NCBI GenBank assembly: GCA_944392985.1
Contig: CALXYL010000019.1
Span: 1 to 41,791, forward strand
Length of the DNA: 41,791 nt
Reading direction: 5' to 3'
Source of the DNA: an uncultured Spirochaetaceae bacterium
Lineage (GTDB): Bacteria; Spirochaetota; Spirochaetia; Sphaerochaetales; Sphaerochaetaceae
Position numbers and translations under genes: made by a program. Of the stretch, positions 195-8,815 are shown piece after piece. A model generated the notes under the pieces. The model ran no database searches, was not told where the DNA came from, and saw nothing but the letters and a program-made list of their open reading frames with translations. Within the stretch, counting starts at the first letter, position 1, and each line of letters opens with the position of its first letter.

Positions 195-761
195 ATGTCG
201 AAGAACGCATCATCAATGAAAGTGGTCACAGGACCGGAGACAAGATTCTCATACTGCCATGTGTGGGAGCCGACCGCCATCAACGGCGGAACACCGAAGT
301 ACAGCATCTCGCTCATCATCCCGAAGAGCGACAAGGTGACAGTGGCGAAGATCAGGAAGGCTATCGAGGCCGCCTACAACGACGGAGCCGGGAAGCTCAG
401 GGGAAACGGGAAGACCGTGCCTCCTCTCTCGTCAATCAAGACACCGCTCCGCGATGGCGATATCGAGAGGCCGGATGATGAGGCGTATGCGAACGCATGG
501 TTCATCAACGCCAACAGCACCACGGCTCCCGGAATCGTCGACAAAGCATGCGAGCCTATCCTCGATAAGAGTCTTGTGTACTCAGGAGTCTACGGAAGAG
601 CCGCGATAACCTTCTATGCCTTCAACTCGAACGGCAACAGGGGAATCGCATGCGGGCTTCAGAACCTGCAGCTTATCCGCGCCGGAGAGCCACTCGGATC
701 CAAGTCCTCGCCGGAGGATGACTTCGGGGATATCGCGGACGACGAAGATTTCCTCGCGTAA
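195..761 (+). CDS. DUF2815 family phage ssDNA-binding-like protein
   Basis: The product is 188 residues with an acidic tail ending EDDFGDIADDEDFLA, typical of phage single-stranded-DNA-binding proteins. The body matches the DUF2815 family, for example PKYSISLIIPKSD near residues 34-46 and VYSGVYGRAAITFYAFN near residues 129-145. The start follows the ribosome-binding site AAGGAG at 180-185. In phages this family sits between the DUF2800 nuclease and a family A DNA polymerase and is thought to assist replication. Here no polymerase follows, and a strong terminator begins 30 bases after the stop, so this looks like a remnant of a phage replication module. The function is known only by family association. 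Confidence 0.75.
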   Translation: MSKNASSMKVVTGPETRFSYCHVWEPTAINGGTPKYSISLIIPKSDKVTVAKIRKAIEAAYNDGAGKLRGNGKTVPPLSSIKTPLRDGDIERPDDEAYANAWFINANSTTAPGIVDKACEPILDKSLVYSGVYGRAAITFYAFNSNGNRGIACGLQNLQLIRAGEPLGSKSSPEDDFGDIADDEDFLA

Positions 762-1865: not shown

Positions 1866-2405
1866 CTAGAGTCCAGGGACGAATTCCCCGTATCTCCTGA
1901 TCCACTCGTTGCGGCAGATTTCGATGAGCTTGTCATCAAATTTCCTGCGCGCTTTTTCCGTCACCCCATCCATCCTGGCGATTTCTGTGTTTGTCAGAAG
2001 GTCACCATAGTGACGGAAGAAATACTCACGGTATTTCTCCGGTACGACCTCATCAATGATGCTCCTGAGGCGTCTTTCATTTTCCGAATGACGTTCTTCC
2101 TTGAAGATGAGCGCTTCTGGAGCGAAACGTTCATCGGGAAAACTGTCCTCAGGAGCGTCTGCAAAGGCCTCGGGATTGCTGGCATATTCGGCCTTCATCC
2201 TTTCGAATGTGTAGTCCATATGCTCTTCATTACGTCTGTTCTGCAGTGCTATTGAACGCTCAGTGCCATGAAGCGTCTCAAATATCGCCTTCTCATGGGG
2301 TTCACAAAGTCTGAGTACAATAGGAGTTCCCATCGGCATTATGATTCTGTATGCCGGTGATCCGTTTACTGGTTCAATTTCTATGAATGAGTAGTCTTCT
2401 GCCAT
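1866..2405 (-). CDS. Sigma-70 region 4-like DNA-binding protein of mobile-element type
   Basis: The product has 179 residues. The C-terminal 80 residues contain a helix-turn-helix of sigma-70 region 4 type: a helix around VPEKYREYFFRHY, then LTNTEIARMDGVTEKARRKF as the likely DNA-binding unit. The N-terminal part is unlike sigma region 2, so a complete sigma factor is unlikely. Similar short sigma-like proteins are common in phages and conjugative elements and act as late-gene or element regulators. An AAAGGAG site precedes the ATG. The gene is convergent with the small membrane protein gene. It fits the idea that 1-2600 is a decayed element, but its target is unknown. Confidence 0.55.
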   Translation of the reverse strand: MAEDYSFIEIEPVNGSPAYRIIMPMGTPIVLRLCEPHEKAIFETLHGTERSIALQNRRNEEHMDYTFERMKAEYASNPEAFADAPEDSFPDERFAPEALIFKEERHSENERRLRSIIDEVVPEKYREYFFRHYGDLLTNTEIARMDGVTEKARRKFDDKLIEICRNEWIRRYGEFVPGL

Positions 2406-2406
2406 C

Positions 2407-2595
2407 TTACGGCTCCTTTCCGAAGCGGCAAGACGACAAAGAAAGACCCGTCATTGGTATGTGCGAAGCCTTCCGAAAGCGCCTTGTAAATGCTTCGGAT
2501 GTTCGTGCTCCGCACCCTGCAGACGGGTACTTTGCGTTGTGAGAAATGACGGATTCTGCATCCCGATGCGCATCGGGAATCCGCATGATGTCCAC
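2407..2595 (-). CDS. Doubtful small ORF upstream of the sigma-like gene
   Basis: A 62-codon frame starts with GTG at 2595 and ends one base before the sigma-like gene's ATG, an arrangement that would allow translational coupling. The product has low-complexity composition and matches nothing I know. A competing 44-codon frame (GTG at 2515, stop at 2381) crosses the sigma-like start and gives a more protein-like sequence containing SIYKALSEGFAHTNDGSFFV. At most one of these is real. The coding status is uncertain. Confidence 0.25.
   Translation of the reverse strand: MDIMRIPDAHRDAESVISHNAKYPSAGCGARTSEAFTRRFRKASHIPMTGLSLSSCRFGKEP
2551..2582. repeat. 18-bp perfect palindrome with nested outer arms
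   Basis: TCCCGATGCGCATCGGGA at 2561-2578 is an exact palindrome. GGATT (2551-2555) and AATCC (2578-2582) form an outer arm, sharing base 2578 with the inner arm. The site is upstream of the minus-strand sigma-like gene and could be an operator or a replication or recombination site of the element. Confidence 0.55.
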
Positions 2596-2887
2596 GCCTT
2601 TTATCGGGTTGCGTTATCCCGTGGTGGTAATCGTTATGGTCCTCTCATGTGGCTCTCCTCCATTGCCAAGCTAGCACATCAAGCTCCTTGAAAATCTCAG
2701 AAGGGCGTTGAATCAAGGTTCTTGACAATAGAAGTGTCTCTTATCTTTGTGTAATTGTCGTATATATAAAGAGATAAATATTGAGATAGATAGTACGCCT
2801 GTGGACTAAGACATGCTATGATTGGACGATAAAGGACGTTAAAAAGATATAATAGGACGCTTGATGGACGATTTAGGATGATTTATA
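2596..2887. other. AT-rich gap with phased GGACG repeats and a promoter before the restriction-modification island
   Basis: No coding frame is supported here. The right part holds GGACG or its variant GGATG starting at 2824, 2834, 2855, 2866 and 2876. The spacings of 10, 21, 11 and 10 bases place all copies on one face of the helix. A perfect -10 (TATAAT, 2848-2853) lies inside the array. A poor -35 candidate is TTGGAC at 2823-2828, with a 19-base spacer. The first gene of the island starts at 2888, giving a leader of roughly 28 bases. The layout suggests a promoter whose activity depends on a protein binding the repeats. Confidence 0.5.
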
Positions 2888-3604
2888 ATGCAAGATATGA
2901 GTCACTTATCTTTTTCCGAGTTTGCTAAACGGTTGCATGAGGTTATAGGGGAGGAACCTCCCGCTTCTTTTGTCAGGGAGCTTTTCTCAAGCTCCGTAAG
3001 TTTACCATCAACTAAAGAGAATCCGATGGTAACGCAGAGCGATGATTCCTTTCGGAAATATTTCACTGGGGGAAATGATATTTCCGCAATAGCTTCTAAG
3101 GTTATTGAATATATGGATGTTGAGGATGTTGAGGGTTTTCTTAATTCAAGAATCCAGGATGATCATGACAAGAAATGTAAACTTTGGGATTCTTTGTCTC
3201 CTTGGCTTGATACCGGCAACTTTAATTGCTGTATTGAAAGCACGGCACGGCTCTTTGTTGAAATTGTCAGGGTAGCTGCTTCCAAACAAGGTAAATGGAA
3301 AAGATCGAACGCTAAAGCAAAACAAGATTTTAGTGTGTATACGATTCCTTATGACGAGAATACATATGAGGTCTATAGGTGTCCAAATTGCGGAGAGACT
3401 CATTTTGATGTAGGGGCTGAATACTGTCCTGGCTGTGGACTCCCTCTGACGAATCATTGTAAAGGCGTTGTAGGGATTAGTGGTTCGCACTGGGATGATC
3501 CTCCGCATGTTTGCAAACCTGCTCAGAAATTCTGTCAGAAATGCGGGGCTCCAACAGTATATTATGAAGATTTCCATTTGATGGATAAGGCCCCTCGTAA
3601 ATAA
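2888..3604 (+). CDS. Zinc-ribbon protein heading the restriction-modification operon
   Basis: The product has 238 residues. The N-terminal 160 residues are mixed helical and match no family I recognise. The C-terminal part carries a zinc ribbon, CPNCG followed after about 14 residues by CPGCG. Further cysteines and a histidine (HVC, CQKCGAP) could form a second metal site. The gene is followed after 17 bases by the methyltransferase gene and lies just after the phased-repeat promoter. By position it may be a controller of expression, a DNA-binding partner of the nucleases or an unrelated cargo gene. No helix-turn-helix of the C-protein type is visible. Base composition is AT-richer than the flanking chromosome. 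Confidence 0.6.
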   Translation: MQDMSHLSFSEFAKRLHEVIGEEPPASFVRELFSSSVSLPSTKENPMVTQSDDSFRKYFTGGNDISAIASKVIEYMDVEDVEGFLNSRIQDDHDKKCKLWDSLSPWLDTGNFNCCIESTARLFVEIVRVAASKQGKWKRSNAKAKQDFSVYTIPYDENTYEVYRCPNCGETHFDVGAEYCPGCGLPLTNHCKGVVGISGSHWDDPPHVCKPAQKFCQKCGAPTVYYEDFHLMDKAPRK

Positions 3605-3621
3605 AGGGGAAAGGACTATAT

Positions 3622-4854
3622 ATGAGATTGTTGTCATTGTTTTCGGGTTGCGGTGGTATGGATTTAGGATTTGAAGGGAATTTTTCTTGCCTTTCTAAAT
3701 CAATAAACAAAGAACTGCATCCAAACTGGATAAAAAAAGGCGATAAAACCTGGTGTGAGCTTGTTCCCACGGGGTTTGAAACAGTTTTCGCAAACGATAT
3801 CAGGCCTGATGCAAAAGCTGCATGGGTATCCTTCTTTTCGCAGGCTCATCCAGATGCGAAGTCAATTTATCACTTGGAAAGCATTGTTGATTTGGTGAAA
3901 AGAGCGAAGGAAGGAGAAAGTGTTTTCCCTGATAATATCGACATTGTAACTGGAGGCTTTCCATGTCAGGATTTTTCCGTTGCGGGTAAACGTCTTGGGT
4001 TCAATTCCATGAAGAGCCACCTCGGAACAGCATTGAAGGCGGATGAACCAACCTCTGAAAGCAGAGGACAACTTTACATGTGGATGAGAGAGGTTGTAAC
4101 TATAACCGCTCCAAAGATTTTCATTGCCGAGAATGTTAAAGGCTTGACGAATCTTGCTGACGTGAAAGAAATCATTGAGCATGATTTTTCTTCCGCAGGG
4201 GATGGTGGCTATATCGTTGTACCCGCAAAAGTTCTTTACGCTCCGGATTATGGTGTGCCACAATCTAGGGAAAGGGTGATATTCTTTGGGTTTAAGAAAA
4301 GCGCATTAACCGAAGATGCGTTGTCAGCTCTTTCATCAGGAAACATACCGGCTGAGTTTGACCCATATCCGGTCCCTACTCATGGAAATGAACTTGTCCC
4401 TTATGTGACTTGTACTGATGCTTTTGTTGGCTTGAAAGAGCCCGATAAAACAAAGGATCCTTCTCAGATGAAATATTCAAGAGCGCAATTTCTGAATTCT
4501 CGCTCACAAGGTCAGGTTGAAATCAAACTGGATTCCGTCAGTCCAACTATCAGATCAGAGCATCATGGCAACATAGAATACAGGCGTCTATCCCGAGAAC
4601 ATGGAGGCTTGCATTTTGATGAATTAAAAAAGGGGTTGAAGGAGAGGCGGTTGACTGTAAGGGAATGCGCCAGACTTCAAACATTCCCGGATAATTATCA
4701 GTTCATACTTCCTAAAACAGAAACCCTTTGCAGTGTCTCTTCAAGCGATGCGTACAAAATAATAGGGAATGCTGTTCCATGTGTTTTGGCATATAACATT
4801 GCCATGAACATTAAAGAAAAGTGGAGATTGTATTTTGGGGAGGAATTCAAATGA
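3622..4854 (+). CDS. DNA (cytosine-5-)-methyltransferase
   Basis: The enzyme transfers a methyl group from S-adenosylmethionine to cytosine C5 in a specific site and protects host DNA from the neighbouring nucleases. All main motifs are visible in 410 residues. Motif I is LSLFSGCGGMDLGFEG at the N-terminus. Motif IV is GGFPCQDFS with the catalytic cysteine at about residue 115. Motif VI is ENVKGL near 170 and motif VIII is QSRERVIFFGF. Motif IX is RRLTVRECARLQTFP and motif X is IIGNAVP near the C-terminus. The variable target-recognition region (roughly 230-335) is ordinary in size, so the recognition site cannot be read. The stop overlaps the next gene's start in ATGA at 4851-4854. The associated Vsr gene supports an m5C specificity. 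Confidence 0.95.
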   Translation: MRLLSLFSGCGGMDLGFEGNFSCLSKSINKELHPNWIKKGDKTWCELVPTGFETVFANDIRPDAKAAWVSFFSQAHPDAKSIYHLESIVDLVKRAKEGESVFPDNIDIVTGGFPCQDFSVAGKRLGFNSMKSHLGTALKADEPTSESRGQLYMWMREVVTITAPKIFIAENVKGLTNLADVKEIIEHDFSSAGDGGYIVVPAKVLYAPDYGVPQSRERVIFFGFKKSALTEDALSALSSGNIPAEFDPYPVPTHGNELVPYVTCTDAFVGLKEPDKTKDPSQMKYSRAQFLNSRSQGQVEIKLDSVSPTIRSEHHGNIEYRRLSREHGGLHFDELKKGLKERRLTVRECARLQTFPDNYQFILPKTETLCSVSSSDAYKIIGNAVPCVLAYNIAMNIKEKWRLYFGEEFK

Positions 4855-5900
4855 TTATCTCTGAAAATTCGAAACCAGATCTTGTTGCTTTTAGAAATCT
4901 AGTGAACCGAATGGATAACATGTTGAACCAAGAGGCAAAAGCAAATCCTTCCTATTACCAAGGTCGAGCCGGAAAACCCTTGGAGAAAGATGTATATGAA
5001 ACGCTTTGTGAATGCTCAAAAGGTACAGAATTCCAAAACACGATACATCTGATATCCGGATTCAGTTTTCCTGATATTGTGGCGGCTCGATATTATGGCG
5101 TGGAAGTTAAGAGCACAAAAGAGAATCATTGGACTTCTACTGGGAGCAGCATACTGGAATCAACAAGAGATCCTAACGTTGAGAGGATTTTTCTTACGTT
5201 TGGAAAACTGGGAACTCCGGTTCAATTCAAATCAAGACCTTACGAGGAATGTATGGCGGAGATAGCCGTGACACATGCGCCACGGTACAGAATTGATATG
5301 ACATTGAAAAAAGGAGAGACAATATTTGATAAGATGGGGATTCCATACGATTCTCTTCGTAAACTTGATAATCCCGCAGAATTTGTTGCGGGGTATTATA
5401 AAAAGCACCTGAAAGAGGGACAGTCTTTGTGGTGGGCAGGAGGAGATTCTGCGACAGTCTCTCCCATCGTTAGATTGTGGTCATCTTTGGATACAGCTGA
5501 AACTGAATCTCTCAAAGTACAAGGTTATGTATTATTCCCGGAGATGTTTGGCAATTCTAGGACAAAGTATGAAAGATTCTCTCTATGGCTAGTGATTAAC
5601 AAGAGTGTCGTGAATAATAATGTTCGCGACAGTGTCTCTGCAGGAGGACAGGTTCTTATGCTGACCTCTGAAGGAATGTCTGTGAAAATGCCGGCTTCTT
5701 TTGGAAGAATAGAAAAATACAAAGAGGAGATAAAAACGATTCTTGATGCAACTCCCGCTTCAGTTTTGATGGAAAACTGGAAAACACAGAGCCTAAAAGC
5801 GGACCGTCTTGAACAATGGTGCTCATTGGTCGCTGTTGCAGCAAGTCCTGTTGTTGGATACCAAACAGCAGTCAGTGTATTAAAACAGATTTTCAAGTAG
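4851..5900 (+). CDS. PD-(D/E)XK restriction endonuclease, paralogue 1
   Basis: The product has 349 residues from the ATG at 4851, chosen because GGAGG precedes it and the ATGA overlap couples it to the methyltransferase. A PD-(D/E)XK core is visible: P74-D75, then E85-V86-K87, with a plausible upstream glutamate near residue 50. The middle contains VTHAPRYRIDM near residue 140, and the C-terminal half has LFPEMFGNSRTKYERFS and NVRDSVSAGG. Each of these recurs in the next gene, so the two proteins are homologous. The family is a type II restriction enzyme by context and motif. I cannot name the specific family or site. Confidence 0.8.
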   Translation: MIISENSKPDLVAFRNLVNRMDNMLNQEAKANPSYYQGRAGKPLEKDVYETLCECSKGTEFQNTIHLISGFSFPDIVAARYYGVEVKSTKENHWTSTGSSILESTRDPNVERIFLTFGKLGTPVQFKSRPYEECMAEIAVTHAPRYRIDMTLKKGETIFDKMGIPYDSLRKLDNPAEFVAGYYKKHLKEGQSLWWAGGDSATVSPIVRLWSSLDTAETESLKVQGYVLFPEMFGNSRTKYERFSLWLVINKSVVNNNVRDSVSAGGQVLMLTSEGMSVKMPASFGRIEKYKEEIKTILDATPASVLMENWKTQSLKADRLEQWCSLVAVAASPVVGYQTAVSVLKQIFK

Positions 5901-5955
5901 CTTCCTACTGGTGGATTGATATATTAGCTGTTACCATATCTAAAAGAGGCTAGAT

Positions 5956-7035
5956 ATGGATGTGGAAAAGAAAAGGGAATTTCTTGATTTCCTTAGCATT
6001 GTAAAATTGGAATTAGAGGAAAAGTTATTACCCAAAGCTCCTAGTGAATATAAGGAATATTGGCGATACGCAGAAAAGGAAACACTTGCTGTTATAAAAG
6101 AAAGAATTAAAAACACAAGTTTTAAAGATACCAGCGTTATTTTTCAGGGAGGGAGTAATAAACATTTTCCAGACATTCTTTTAGACAACTTGAAGATTGG
6201 GATAGAAATAAAATCCTCAAGCAAATGGACCGTACCAGGTGGAAGTGTTTTTGAATGGATAAAAGCTGGTGATCTTGAAGAGATATTCATCATTTTCTGT
6301 AGGCATGATTTAAGATGTAAGAAACCAGTTGAAGTTCGTGTTGGCGATTATAAAACGTTTATTTCAGATATAACAGTTACTCATAGTCCTCGTTTTTCAA
6401 TAGACATGAATTTGAAAAGCCGACCTAACGATAGAATTTTGAGGGATACTTTGGAAAACAGTTACTCAAATGAAACTGAGTATAGTAAGCAGGTCGCCAA
6501 ATATTTGAACTCAAAATTAAAACCTGGCGAAGTTTATTGGTGGTCCTTTAATAAAGAAGCAGAAAGTGGAAAATATATTCTCTTTTCAAAGATTAAAGCT
6601 GATAAAAACAGCAAATATGAAGCTCCTGAGACATATATTTCACAGGCGATTGTTTTATTTCCAGAATTGTTTTCTAATTCTTCCACAAAATATATAAGAG
6701 TTAGCAAATGGTTTGATTCTAAAAAGATTATTTGCCCTAATATTCGAGATTTATTCACTGCTGGAGGAAAGCTTGTCATCTCAGAGTCAGGAATAAAATT
6801 GCCTCATATTTTTGCTGTTGTGAAGGAGAATCAAGAAAAGATACGAGAGGCTTTTACTAATCTCACAACGGATGAATTAGTTGAGAACTGGGAGATTGAT
6901 GATTGTGTTCAAAAAAACATTATAGATACCGTCGAAGATAGATTCCGGTATTGGAAAAATCTTGTTGAACAGAGTATTGGTAAAAACTTGAATTCAGAAA
7001 TGATAAAAATAGTCGAATTGGTAAAGCCTGAGTAA
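5956..7035 (+). CDS. PD-(D/E)XK restriction endonuclease, paralogue 2
   Basis: The product has 359 residues and is a diverged homologue of the preceding protein. The core is P72-D73 followed by E84-I85-K86, so the catalytic residues are kept. The shared motifs appear in the same order and position: VTHSPRFSIDM near 140, LFPELFSNSSTKYIRVS, NIRDLFTAGG and a closing ENW. Nearly every gap between the two is a short insertion. The gene is markedly AT-richer than its partner, which argues against a recent duplication and suggests separate acquisition or long divergence. It starts 55 bases after the first nuclease and ends directly against the Vsr start codon. It may form a heterodimer with paralogue 1 or cut a different site. 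Confidence 0.75.
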   Translation: MDVEKKREFLDFLSIVKLELEEKLLPKAPSEYKEYWRYAEKETLAVIKERIKNTSFKDTSVIFQGGSNKHFPDILLDNLKIGIEIKSSSKWTVPGGSVFEWIKAGDLEEIFIIFCRHDLRCKKPVEVRVGDYKTFISDITVTHSPRFSIDMNLKSRPNDRILRDTLENSYSNETEYSKQVAKYLNSKLKPGEVYWWSFNKEAESGKYILFSKIKADKNSKYEAPETYISQAIVLFPELFSNSSTKYIRVSKWFDSKKIICPNIRDLFTAGGKLVISESGIKLPHIFAVVKENQEKIREAFTNLTTDELVENWEIDDCVQKNIIDTVEDRFRYWKNLVEQSIGKNLNSEMIKIVELVKPE

Positions 7036-7494
7036 ATGGATAAATACTCTGTTGAGATTCGACATGAAATGATGGCGGCTGTTAAAAGTAAAAATACGTC
7101 TCCGGAGGTTTTTCTCCGGAAGCTGTTATTTAGCCGTGGCTTTCGATATCGCACTAACTCTTCCAAAGTAGAAGGTCATCCTGATATCTGGCTTGCCAGA
7201 TACAATACAGCCATATTTGTAAATGGCTGTTTCTGGCATGGACATGAAGGCTGCTCAAATTTCCGTGTACCTAAGAGCAACGTCGAATTCTGGGAAACGA
7301 AATTCAGGAAGAATATCGATCGTGATAAGCGAATCAAGGCTGATCTCAAAACGCAAGGTATAAAAGAACTGGTTGTATGGGAATGTGCAATACGCAGGAT
7401 GAGAAAGGACGAATCTTACAGGAATGAAATCCTTGAACAGATTGAGGGGTTCCTTAAATCAGCTGATCAGTACATGGAAATAGGGAATCTGTAG
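7036..7494 (+). CDS. vsr: Very short patch repair (Vsr) endonuclease
   Basis: Vsr nicks DNA next to T:G mismatches that arise when 5-methylcytosine deaminates, so it limits mutation at the methyltransferase's sites. The 152-residue product has the family's layout: MAAVKSKNTSPE near the start, GHPDIW with the catalytic aspartate D50, and VNGCFWHGHEGC with H68, H70 and zinc-site cysteines. It ends with the WE-C-A-I motif near residue 115. Its ATG directly follows the stop of nuclease 2, so it is in the same operon. Its presence is independent support that the methyltransferase makes m5C. Confidence 0.93.
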   Translation: MDKYSVEIRHEMMAAVKSKNTSPEVFLRKLLFSRGFRYRTNSSKVEGHPDIWLARYNTAIFVNGCFWHGHEGCSNFRVPKSNVEFWETKFRKNIDRDKRIKADLKTQGIKELVVWECAIRRMRKDESYRNEILEQIEGFLKSADQYMEIGNL

Positions 7495-7510
7495 AAATTC
7501 ATTCGGAAAG

Positions 7511-7540
7511 TTGTCAGAAACAGCCATTCACGGCGTATAT
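7511..7540 (+). promoter_or_regulatory. Possible promoter for the 114-residue protein gene
   Basis: TTGTCA (7511-7516) and GTATAT (7535-7540) are 18 bases apart. The predicted transcript would begin almost inside the ribosome-binding site, so this is tentative. Confidence 0.3.
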
Positions 7541-7560
7541 GATATAGGAGGTGATTTCCT

Positions 7561-7905
7561 ATGTCAGAGAAATACCAGAGACCGGATCACATCCGCGTGG
7601 TTAAAGCGGTTTGTGTCGAGTTCGGAAACAACGATGACACCTGGACATGGTGCTATCTCGATGTGCGTGAGGCATTGACGAAAGCCAAAGAGCTTCTGAT
7701 GAAGCTGGAACCTGATGAGAGGCTTGCCTACTGCGGCCAGAATCTGAGGACAGGTGAGATTCTCGAACTTGTCCCCTCAGAGGATGATTTGGAAATCGGT
7801 GGCGTGAAGTACGGGGATTACAAAGAAGAGCTCCTCAGGATTGAACCTACAGATTTCAGCAGCTGGCTGGAAGGGACTCCTGAGCATATCTTCGGTGATG
7901 TATGA
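7561..7905 (+). CDS. Hypothetical protein of 114 residues
   Basis: I do not recognise this acidic, soluble protein, which has no signal peptide or membrane segment. A near-perfect ribosome-binding site, AGGAGGTGAT at 7546-7555, precedes the ATG, and codon use looks chromosomal. The sequence contains a tryptophan-rich strand (DDTWTWCYLDV) followed by an amphipathic helix (REALTKAKELLMKL), consistent with a small alpha/beta domain. It lies between the restriction island and radC and ends in a hairpin at 7911-7937. It may be the last gene of the accessory region. Confidence 0.5.
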   Translation: MSEKYQRPDHIRVVKAVCVEFGNNDDTWTWCYLDVREALTKAKELLMKLEPDERLAYCGQNLRTGEILELVPSEDDLEIGGVKYGDYKEELLRIEPTDFSSWLEGTPEHIFGDV

Positions 7906-7910
7906 CGGAA

Positions 7911-7937
7911 AGAGGCGGGGTAGGTGGCTCCGCCTCT
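7911..7937 (+). terminator. Hairpin after the 114-residue protein gene
   Basis: AGAGGCGG (7911-7918) pairs with CCGCCTCT (7930-7937). The following bases are not T-rich, so it may be a weak terminator. Confidence 0.45.
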
Positions 7938-8152
7938 CTCAAATTGAACCCTGAAACGAAATTCACACAATGAAACGAAAATACCCATAGGGGTGGCTAA
8001 AGAATTAAAAAGCACAGAAGAGGGTAGATTCTCCTCCTTTGCAGCTTCTTGTTAATCACCATGATGTCGTTTGTGTAAATGTGATATCTGTTTCTTAATT
8101 TCTTTTAATATAAAGAATAATAATAGCAACTGTGATTCTGCTGAGATATGCC

Positions 8153-8815
8153 TCAGAATCCCGATTGTATCAAAAGTGTAAACATCACATGATCCAGCAC
8201 CTTCACCCCGAGTATCTCCCCGGCCTTCACCAGGCGCTTCGTCACATCCTTGTCCTCCTCGGAAGGATCGACGTTCCCCGATGGATGGTTATGCGCTATC
8301 GCTATGGCGGCAGCGCGTCGGCGGATCGCTTCAGAGAATACTTCCCTTGGATGGACAATCGTCCTGTTCAGCAGTCCCATTGTTGCCACGATTGTCTCCA
8401 TTGCCTCATGGGCGCCATTGAGGGGCACTACCAGAAGCAGCTCCTGCTCCCGGGAAGCAAAATGCCTTATCTCGCGGAAGATGTCTCCCGGGCTGGATAT
8501 TACACGTCCTTTGCTTCGGCATCTGCGTCTGCCAAGCTCAAGAGCCGCTCCTATCGCGGAGGCCTTCGCCCTTCCAAGCCCTGGCACTGTCTGGATCTCC
8601 TCTGCCGTGATACCCGGATTACTGTCGAGCTTCTGCAGCAGATCCCCTGCAATCTCATCAACAGGTCGTCTTGCGTTGCCCGAACCGATCAGGAGCATCA
8701 GGAGCTCCTTGTCTGTCAGGGCTTCCGATCCAAGCCTCTCAAGGCGTTCCCGTGGCCTTTCATCATACGGTGTTTCCCGCAGTGCCACGGATGTGCTGGA
8801 AATGATGTATCTCAT
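8153..8815 (-). CDS. radC: RadC family JAMM-domain protein
   Basis: The product has 220 residues. The N-terminal part carries the RadC helix-hairpin-helix region (ERPRERLERLGSEALTDKEL, then VPGLGRAKASAIGAALEL). The C-terminal part is the JAMM/MPN metal site AHNHPSGNVDPSEED. The role of RadC is unsettled; older links to DNA repair are disputed. The end is a few residues shorter and less conserved than usual: after LDHVMFT the common aromatic strand is missing. The gene is divergent from the MerR gene, 70 bases away. Identity is secure, function less so. Confidence 0.93.
   Translation of the reverse strand: MRYIISSTSVALRETPYDERPRERLERLGSEALTDKELLMLLIGSGNARRPVDEIAGDLLQKLDSNPGITAEEIQTVPGLGRAKASAIGAALELGRRRCRSKGRVISSPGDIFREIRHFASREQELLLVVPLNGAHEAMETIVATMGLLNRTIVHPREVFSEAIRRRAAAIAIAHNHPSGNVDPSEEDKDVTKRLVKAGEILGVKVLDHVMFTLLIQSGF

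What the first reader, a model, noticed from the sequence alone, without database searches (positions are those of the whole stretch)
2824..2880. Helically phased GGACG repeats around the promoter of the restriction-modification operon
GGACG or GGATG begins at 2824, 2834, 2855, 2866 and 2876, in steps of 10, 21, 11 and 10 bases, so all copies face one side of the helix. TATAAT at 2848-2853 sits in the gap. This is not the paired dyad expected for classic C-protein boxes. A direct-repeat array points to a different regulator, perhaps the zinc-ribbon protein or a host factor, or to auto-control by the nuclease or methyltransferase if GGACG resembles their site.
Basis: partly seen in the sequence, partly recalled or inferred. 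Interest (0 to 1): 0.55.

Follow-up and report, generated by a model that had tools for sequence, protein, structure and literature searches.

The report
Self-matched repeats before defence genes
The evenly spaced GGACG repeats in front of this restriction-modification operon are real, and similar ten-base repeat arrays with other core sequences sit before most of the related genes examined that share the first gene's N-terminal domain, so that domain probably reads the repeats in front of its own gene to control itself.

Summary
The array is real: GGACG/GGATG at 2824, 2834, 2855, 2866 and 2876, within 0.5 bp of a 10.5-bp grid. It is not a feature of the methyltransferase-nuclease core: 0 of 90 relatives have it upstream. 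It goes with the first gene. The first 150 residues of the zinc-ribbon protein match the N-terminus of a Lamassu LmuA model. This domain (NTD) also starts ABC-3C/Lamassu proteins (CTD6, CTD11) and phage proteins, most of whose genes carry direct repeats with a 10-bp step at about -60 to -20, just before the Shine-Dalgarno. In a test set of 27 non-redundant homologues chosen by protein only, 17 pass a strict repeat test against 1 of 210 control upstreams; lag-10 self-identity is raised, p = 2e-10 if rows were independent, which they are not fully. Cores differ between clades (GGTAG, GGAAG, GTACA, GGACA, GGTTC...), and two NTD genes in one genome have different cores. Best reading: each NTD recognises its own array for autoregulation, on DNA or leader RNA. 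CsrA was found in 0 of 60 genomes of the host family. Direct-repeat control of R-M operons is known (RptR, HsdC); this domain-array pairing appeared in none of the paper listings I saw.

The parts
2712..7514 (+). Replaceable cassette holding array, zinc-ribbon gene, methyltransferase, two nucleases and vsr
   Evidence: Flanks 2400-2711 and 7515-7936 match same-genus genome G016 at 87-88%; G016 has 1.7 kb of other cargo between them. One genome compared
2824..2880 (+). Five-copy direct-repeat array, core GGAYGNT, steps 10, 21, 11, 10
2844..2854 (+). Degenerate unit in register (AAGATATAATA) holding TATAAT 2848-2853, a candidate -10
   Evidence: unproven as a promoter
2814..2822 (+). Candidate extended -10, TGCTATGAT
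   Evidence: read by eye; unproven
2875..2878 (+). Shine-Dalgarno AGGA, overlapping the fifth repeat
   Evidence: 9 nt before ATG 2888
2888..3604 (+). Zinc-ribbon protein, 238 aa: N-terminal LmuA-like domain plus C-terminal zinc ribbon
2888..3337 (+). N-terminal domain (NTD), about residues 7-150
   Evidence: PADLOC LmuA PDLC03857 positions 1-150, E 4.8e-13
3374..3448 (+). Zinc ribbon, residues 163-187
   Evidence: Zn_ribbon_3, E 3e-6 but 26.9 bits against a cutoff of 27
3622..4854 (+). C5 DNA methyltransferase, nearest solved structures HaeIII methylase
4851..5900 (+). Restriction endonuclease R1, EcoRV-like fold by prediction (start taken at ATG 4851, as in its relatives; the ORF lister starts at GTG 4821)
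   Evidence: best Foldseek E 4.6e-3
5956..7035 (+). Second nuclease R2, paralogue of R1 (33%)
7036..7494 (+). Vsr mismatch endonuclease

Best explanation
The array is the cognate recognition site of the N-terminal domain (NTD) of the first gene's own product. Several NTDs bind the repeats side by side, and this holds down expression of the gene and of the operon behind it, keeping the nuclease operon low until the protein is lost or occupied elsewhere. Shown: array, domain homology, recurrent domain-array association, core diversity. Inferred: binding, cooperativity, repression and its trigger. Whether the target is DNA or leader RNA is open. I lean slightly to DNA (about 55:45) for this locus, because the steps 10, 21, 11, 10 keep helical phase. 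Against DNA, in most homologues the array lies about 80 nt after a conserved extended -10 and just before the Shine-Dalgarno.
For: NTD homology: the PADLOC LmuA N-terminus matches the window protein and the 5 homologues given, E 3.3e-11 to 1.5e-18; direct match to L337, E 2e-9. Homologues were gathered by protein only. Test set: 27 non-redundant upstreams without the window and the three that suggested the idea. Mean lag-10 z is 2.02 against -0.37 in 81 control ORF upstreams, Mann-Whitney p 1.7e-10; z>=2 in 14 of 27 against 0 of 81; of lags 4-30 only 10, 20 and 30 reach 0.5. Strict test (exact 4-mer three times at steps of 10 or 11): 17 of 27 against 1 of 210; with steps of 7-9 or 12-16 the family gives 0 of 27, the controls 13 of 210 at 12/13 and 1 of 210 at 15/16. 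Other controls, strict test: LmuA matches without the NTD 0 of 4, methyltransferase relatives 0 of 90. Lag-10 identity is concentrated at -51..-20, each base compared with the one 10 upstream; the window array spans -64..-8. Cores follow clades in the NTD tree. Two NTD genes in one genome have different cores: G473 GTACA and GGTAG; G734 TGACC and CCTGAG. L340 has GGTGG in its four in-register copies where 60%-identical L346 has GGTAG/T.
Against: The window does not pass the strict 4-mer test, because GGATG breaks the run and one unit is degenerate; it passes on lag 10 (z 2.9). Ten of 27 test members fail the strict test; five show no convincing array even by eye (L371 and L372, weak domain hits; L377; L378; L382, a NACHT protein). 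The 27 are not phylogenetically independent: eight belong to the GGTAG clade; outside it 11 of 19 pass. One control without the NTD, L363, has lag-10 z 2.1. In 394 genomes of the host's own class the NTD query found only itself and one hit that I judge chance (E 8e-4). The window NTD is a long, unresolved branch, at most 29-34% identical to any other. The extended -10 at -170..-120 (18 of 27 against 2 of 208 controls) is missing in the window. The NTD has no credible solved relative and the single-sequence model of the protein is poor (pLDDT 39), so nucleic-acid binding is not shown. Cores are no more unpaired in predicted leader RNA than their surroundings (0.40, 0.45, 0.46).
Confidence: 0.58

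Rival explanations
1. The array is mainly a self-recognition tag, like aba for BstA: DNA repeats next to the defence gene bind its product and spare the element that carries it, with cognate specificity.
For: Many carriers are phages or viral contigs and several are ABC-3C/Lamassu proteins. Cores differ between genes. The published aba element overlaps the start of bstA, contains direct repeats, acts as DNA and is cognate to its own BstA (PMC8585504, passages).
Against: The placement before the Shine-Dalgarno and about 80 nt after a conserved -10 suggests expression control; genes from bacterial genome bins have the arrays too (whether they lie in prophages was not checked). No activity is known for the window protein.
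Confidence: 0.13
2. A host or other trans-acting transcription factor, not the NTD protein, reads the repeats.
For: Helical phasing and promoter overlap are typical of operators. XRE-like genes were found near 10 of 91 relatives of the M-R core, five of them divergent and directly upstream.
Against: No second array seen in the genome; triple arrays occur in 2 of 139 genomes of the family, this one included; different cores in one genome; no helix-turn-helix match among the five cassette proteins, though R1 and R2 match no Pfam family at all.
Confidence: 0.12
3. Neutral tandem duplication of a 10-11-bp unit, with no function.
For: Neighbouring units are alike outside the core as well (GGACGATAAA/GGACGTTAAA; GGACGATTTA/GGATGATTTA). 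Triple GGACGNT arrays in viral contigs are about as common as a composition control (99 against 78 stretches).
Against: Recurrence at the same place before NTD genes with different cores, against 1 of 210 controls, is not expected of slippage.
Confidence: 0.08
4. A CsrA/RsmA-type leader: five GGA motifs, one on the Shine-Dalgarno, bound by CsrA.
For: Position and GGA motifs fit (the CsrA motif is recalled, with listings).
Against: CsrA is found in 0 of 60 genomes of the family, own included, against 31 of 40 others of the class. Many homologous arrays lack GGA (GTACA, GGTAG).
Confidence: 0.01
5. Auto-control by the methyltransferase or nuclease binding its own site.
For: Known for other systems (recalled; no call).
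Against: 0 of 90 relatives have the array; no N-terminal extension on the methyltransferase; GGACG is not palindromic, whereas HaeIII-type enzymes use palindromes (recalled). The site of this enzyme was not determined.
Confidence: 0.03

Closest known systems
RptR (PMC12255303; outline with abstract, passages and section 23 read)
   Same: First gene of a defence/R-M island; its product represses its own promoter through a series of short direct repeats that overlap the -10.
   Different: RptR is a 9-kDa protein reading the palindrome TAGCTA in 9-bp repeats of a Type I system. NTD cores are mostly not palindromic, and RptR was not among the solved-structure matches of the protein or the NTD profile.
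HsdC of Mollicutes (PMC5282649; outline with abstract and passages read)
   Same: R-M controller binding direct repeats (GTGTTAN5)2, an 11-bp step, over the -10 and start site; different species have different motifs.
   Different: HsdC is a C-protein homologue. The window protein has no helix-turn-helix match, and family arrays mostly have 3-5 copies near the Shine-Dalgarno.
MraZ (passage in PMC5282649)
   Same: Direct repeats with a 10-bp step, (AAAGTGKN3)3, bound by an oligomer.
   Different: Not among the solved-structure matches of the NTD profile; a conserved core-genome regulator (passages of PMC5138195).
BstA and aba (PMC8585504; passages read)
   Same: Prophage defence protein with a cognate DNA element holding direct repeats at the start of its own gene.
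   Different: aba is 63 bp with a CCCGCC repeat at each end; BstA has a KilA-N-like domain.
TAACTGA repeats (PMC4679880; outline with abstract read)
   Different: One heptamer in 169 sets in a genome; no cognate protein named in the abstract beyond candidate families.
Lamassu/ABC-3C LmuA (PMC10586767; passages read)
   Same: The same N-terminal domain as the PADLOC LmuA model PDLC03857; homologues carry CTD6 or CTD11.
   Different: The window protein has a zinc ribbon instead of a CTD and sits in an R-M operon; no SMC-like gene in the cassette.

Membership tests
Classic C-protein / C-box control | Small helix-turn-helix controller in the operon | tested here: not met
   No HTH match in the five cassette proteins
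Classic C-protein / C-box control | Paired inverted-repeat C-boxes at the promoter | tested here: not met
   Direct repeats of GGAYGNT
RptR-type regulation | Direct-repeat array overlapping the promoter of the defence operon | tested here: inconclusive
   Array is real; promoter not mapped
RptR-type regulation | Homology to RptR and TAGCTA cores | tested here: not met
   Core GGAYG; RptR not among solved-structure matches of protein or NTD profile; that its entry is in that copy was not checked
NTD-array family (this work) | N-terminal LmuA-like domain in the first gene | tested here: met
   PDLC03857 1-150, E 4.8e-13
NTD-array family (this work) | Direct repeats with a 10-bp step between about -65 and -10 of that gene | tested here: met
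   Lag-10 z 2.9, -64..-8; the strict 4-mer test is not passed by the window
NTD-array family (this work) | Extended -10 at -170..-120 | tested here: not met
   No TGnTATAAT-like site there in the window; 18 of 27 test members have it
NTD-array family (this work) | NTD binds the array | not testable with these tools
   needs a binding assay
CsrA-regulated leader | csrA in the genome | tested here: not met
   0 of 60 genomes of the family
Lamassu/ABC-3C system | LmuA with CTD plus SMC-like LmuB in one operon | tested here: not met
   Only the N-terminal part of LmuA; neighbours are methyltransferase, nucleases and vsr

The most novel reading that the evidence does not exclude
The NTD is a widespread specificity module of phage-defence proteins (ABC-3C/Lamassu effectors, phage proteins, an R-M operon). 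Its genes carry private arrays of 10-bp repeats at the same place, array and domain change together, and array recognition both represses the gene and marks the carrying element as self: a domain-array code comparable to BstA-aba but spread over several defence systems.
Probability: 0.12. Interest if true: 0.85.

Novelty: new variant of a known kind. Interest (0 to 1): 0.64.

Why it matters
One review of Lamassu says that it is not clear how LmuA effectors are kept off and treats the LmuA N-terminus as the enzymatic part (PMC10586767, passages). If one group of LmuA N-termini instead reads a private repeat array at its own gene, that gives a directly testable control switch for several defence systems and a natural set of matched domain-site pairs for learning a recognition code. 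It would also explain how an R-M operon without a C-protein is controlled.

Tried and rejected
CsrA leader: fitted the sequence, rejected because csrA was found in 0 of 60 genomes of the host family. Array as part of the M-R core: rejected, 0 of 90. Array as a widespread operator motif: own-genome pairs, family-wide triples and viral-contig triples gave no enrichment beyond this locus. Intrinsic curvature: 76th percentile of 341 AT-matched stretches (88th of all window stretches), not notable. Rfam on 2400-8200: one match at E 1.6, far under its gathering score. RNA fold of 2829-2920: z -0.82. Structure of the zinc-ribbon protein: unusable, pLDDT 39. NTD profile against solved structures: best E 0.0041 to a ribosomal protein, taken as chance. 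The chained 5-mer statistic separates family from controls only loosely (four or more copies: 36 of 41 against 57 of 171), so I rely. One search stopped on an N base and was redone. Viral-contig scans with the L338 and L337 proteins found nothing; a plasmid search with L339 found nothing.

Rows dropped: of the NTD loci found I left out L354-L357 (only the C-terminal part matched), L362 (match from position 85, frame unclear) and L381 (match from 52, frame broken); H27, H31-H34 and H39-H41 were not fetched under those ids (H27 scores like H26; H32-H34, H39 and H40 are records fetched as L342, L385, L384, L343 and L340; H31 is the record of L386; H41 is the record of H27). L157 was dropped as chance. 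L363, L364, L373 and L374 (no NTD) served as controls. 41 members remain, 31 after removing upstreams at least 70% identical, 27 without the window and L337-L339. The 26 curated cores were picked by eye after seeing the arrays; the strict and lag tests do not use them. Start codons were set by hand from annotation or the protein match.

Full report
Observation. GGACG starts at 2824, 2834, 2855 and 2866 and GGATG at 2876; TATAAT lies at 2848-2853. The copies fit a 10.5-bp grid within 0.5 bp. Five phased copies were matched by 0 of 1000 shuffles and by no other of 425 window tiles; five unphased copies are less special (10 of 1000; 6 of 425). The fifth copy overlaps the Shine-Dalgarno of the first gene (ATG 2888).

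Setting. The operon is a 238-aa zinc-ribbon protein, a C5 methyltransferase, two paralogous nucleases (R1, R2) and Vsr. R1, folded with 32 aligned relatives (R2 among them), is modelled with confidence (pLDDT 90) and its nearest solved folds are EcoRV entries, though weakly (E 4.6e-3). The stretch 2712-7514, array included, behaves as a cassette: in same-genus genome G016 the two flanks match at 87-88% with 1.7 kb of other genes between them. So the array travels with the operon, as far as one genome shows.

Is the array part of the R-M core? No. Of 91 methyltransferase relatives over 50% identical, 90 had enough upstream DNA; none has three GGAYG within 57 nt in the 400 nt upstream, and none has five phased 5-mers (7 have four). 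In the last 75 nt before the gene 0 of 90 pass the strict repeat test and 2 of 90 have lag-10 z>=2. XRE-like genes lie near 10 of 91, five of them divergent and directly upstream. No relative of the zinc-ribbon gene was found in these loci at E 1e-5 (best phmmer value 0.065, L071).

Is it a host-wide operator or a CsrA leader? Pairs of the motif in the genome are not above control (21 against 35); triple GGAYGNT arrays occur in 2 of 139 genomes of the family, this one included. csrA was found in none of the 60 genomes of the family (own included) and in 31 of the other 40 genomes of the class. I reject CsrA.

The turning point. The first 150 residues of the zinc-ribbon protein match the N-terminus of the PADLOC LmuA model PDLC03857. 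In 394 genomes of the host's class that part found only itself and one hit judged chance. In 50 genomes that carry relatives of the M-R core it gave three distant homologues in two genomes. All three have 10-bp-spaced direct repeats just before the start codon, with other cores: GTACA (L337, the last copy running into the start codon), RGACA (L338), GGTAG (L339). I then collected further homologues by protein only: phage records, viral contigs (14 loci, 10 with the domain), 391 genomes of one class (18 matches in 16 genomes) and 394 genomes of one order (7 matches in 7 genomes).

Test. Leaving out the window and the three that suggested the idea, 27 non-redundant upstreams remain. Mean lag-10 z is 2.02 against -0.37 for 81 control ORF upstreams from the same loci (p 1.7e-10); lag 20 (0.98) and lag 30 (0.66) are the only other lags above 0.5. 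Exact 4-mers three times at steps of 10 or 11: 17 of 27 against 1 of 210 controls. With steps of 7-9 or 12-16 the family gives 0 of 27; the controls give 13 of 210 at 12/13 and 1 of 210 at 15/16. LmuA matches without the domain: 0 of 4 on the strict test, though one of them, L363, has lag-10 z 2.1. The rows are not independent: eight of 27 belong to the GGTAG clade; outside it 11 of 19 pass (rows). The window itself fails the strict test but has lag-10 z 2.9. Five of 27 show no convincing array even by eye (L371, L372, L377, L378, L382).

Anatomy of the family. Lag-10 identity is concentrated at -51..-20. In 26 arrays curated by eye, the window included, the first core is at -57 +/- 10 and the last at -27 +/- 9. 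Of 72 steps 56 are 10, six are 11, four are 9, two are 12 and one is 13; of the two of 20 and one of 21, two span a missing unit and one reaches the Shine-Dalgarno of L340. An extended -10 (TGnTATAAT-like) stands at -170..-120 in 18 of 27 against 2 of 208 controls; in the 19 curated rows with one it lies 81 +/- 10 nt before the first core. So in most members the array is probably transcribed and lies just before the Shine-Dalgarno. The window array spans -64..-8, the same place, but without that -10.

Specificity. Cores follow clades of the domain tree, though deep nodes are unresolved and the window is a long branch. G473 has two NTD genes with GTACA and GGTAG, G734 two with TGACC and CCTGAG (the second domain hit is weak, E 6e-6). 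L340 has GGTGG in its four in-register copies where its 60%-identical relative L346 has GGTAG/T. One host factor reading all arrays does not fit this; a private match between each protein and its array does.

Domain partners. The NTD precedes CTD11 (L337, L338, L365, L367, L369, L375, L380) or CTD6 (L358, L361, L376) of ABC-3C systems. A streptococcal phage carries an NTD gene annotated CTD11 ahead of a small gene and a DUF2326 gene (L384), and a second one has the same layout (L385). L382 is a NACHT protein without a visible array.

Mechanism. I propose that the NTD binds its own array and represses its gene, here with the R-M genes behind it. Binding is inferred. Exact 10-bp steps and the kept helical phase in the window favour DNA, with MraZ, HsdC and RptR as precedents (PMC5282649 passages; PMC12255303 section 23). 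The place before the Shine-Dalgarno, far from the -10, and odd steps of 12-13 in L367, L375 and L386 favour leader RNA. Predicted RNA pairing does not separate cores from surroundings. A third reading is an aba-like self tag (PMC8585504 passages).

Novelty. Direct-repeat control of R-M operons is published. In the held library, the rows listed show no paper on repeat arrays at LmuA/ABC-3C genes or on this N-terminal domain as a regulator. Several of these lists were short cuts of hundreds of papers, and most subscription papers and preprints are not held, so this is weak evidence of absence.

Noticed in passing
window 2712-7514 and L155 3971-5693: A cargo slot between a gene with a weak sigma-factor match (1866-2405) and the gene at 7561: the R-M cassette here; in G016 a helix-turn-helix-looking gene and one with an HExxH motif (by eye only).
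   Followed up: partly
window 4851-7035: Two tandem paralogous nucleases behind one methyltransferase. Among 91 relatives only L105 (one on each side of the methyltransferase) and L122 (probably one split gene) showed two nuclease stretches.
   Followed up: partly
L081, L083, L085, L086, L092 upstream of the methyltransferase: Divergent XRE-type genes next to the same M-R core, possibly C-proteins.
   Followed up: no
L340-L353, about -110 to -85: Hairpin followed by a T-run between the extended -10 and the array in several phage leaders (by eye); might be an attenuator.
   Followed up: no
L382: A NACHT-domain protein carries the same N-terminal domain but has no visible array.
   Followed up: partly
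L339 protein residues 2-142: Weak match to the N-terminus of HamA1 of Hachiman (E 0.0034); the domain may be wider spread in defence proteins.
   Followed up: no
window 195-758: Enc34-type phage ssDNA-binding protein, hinting that the left end of the window is phage-derived.
   Followed up: no
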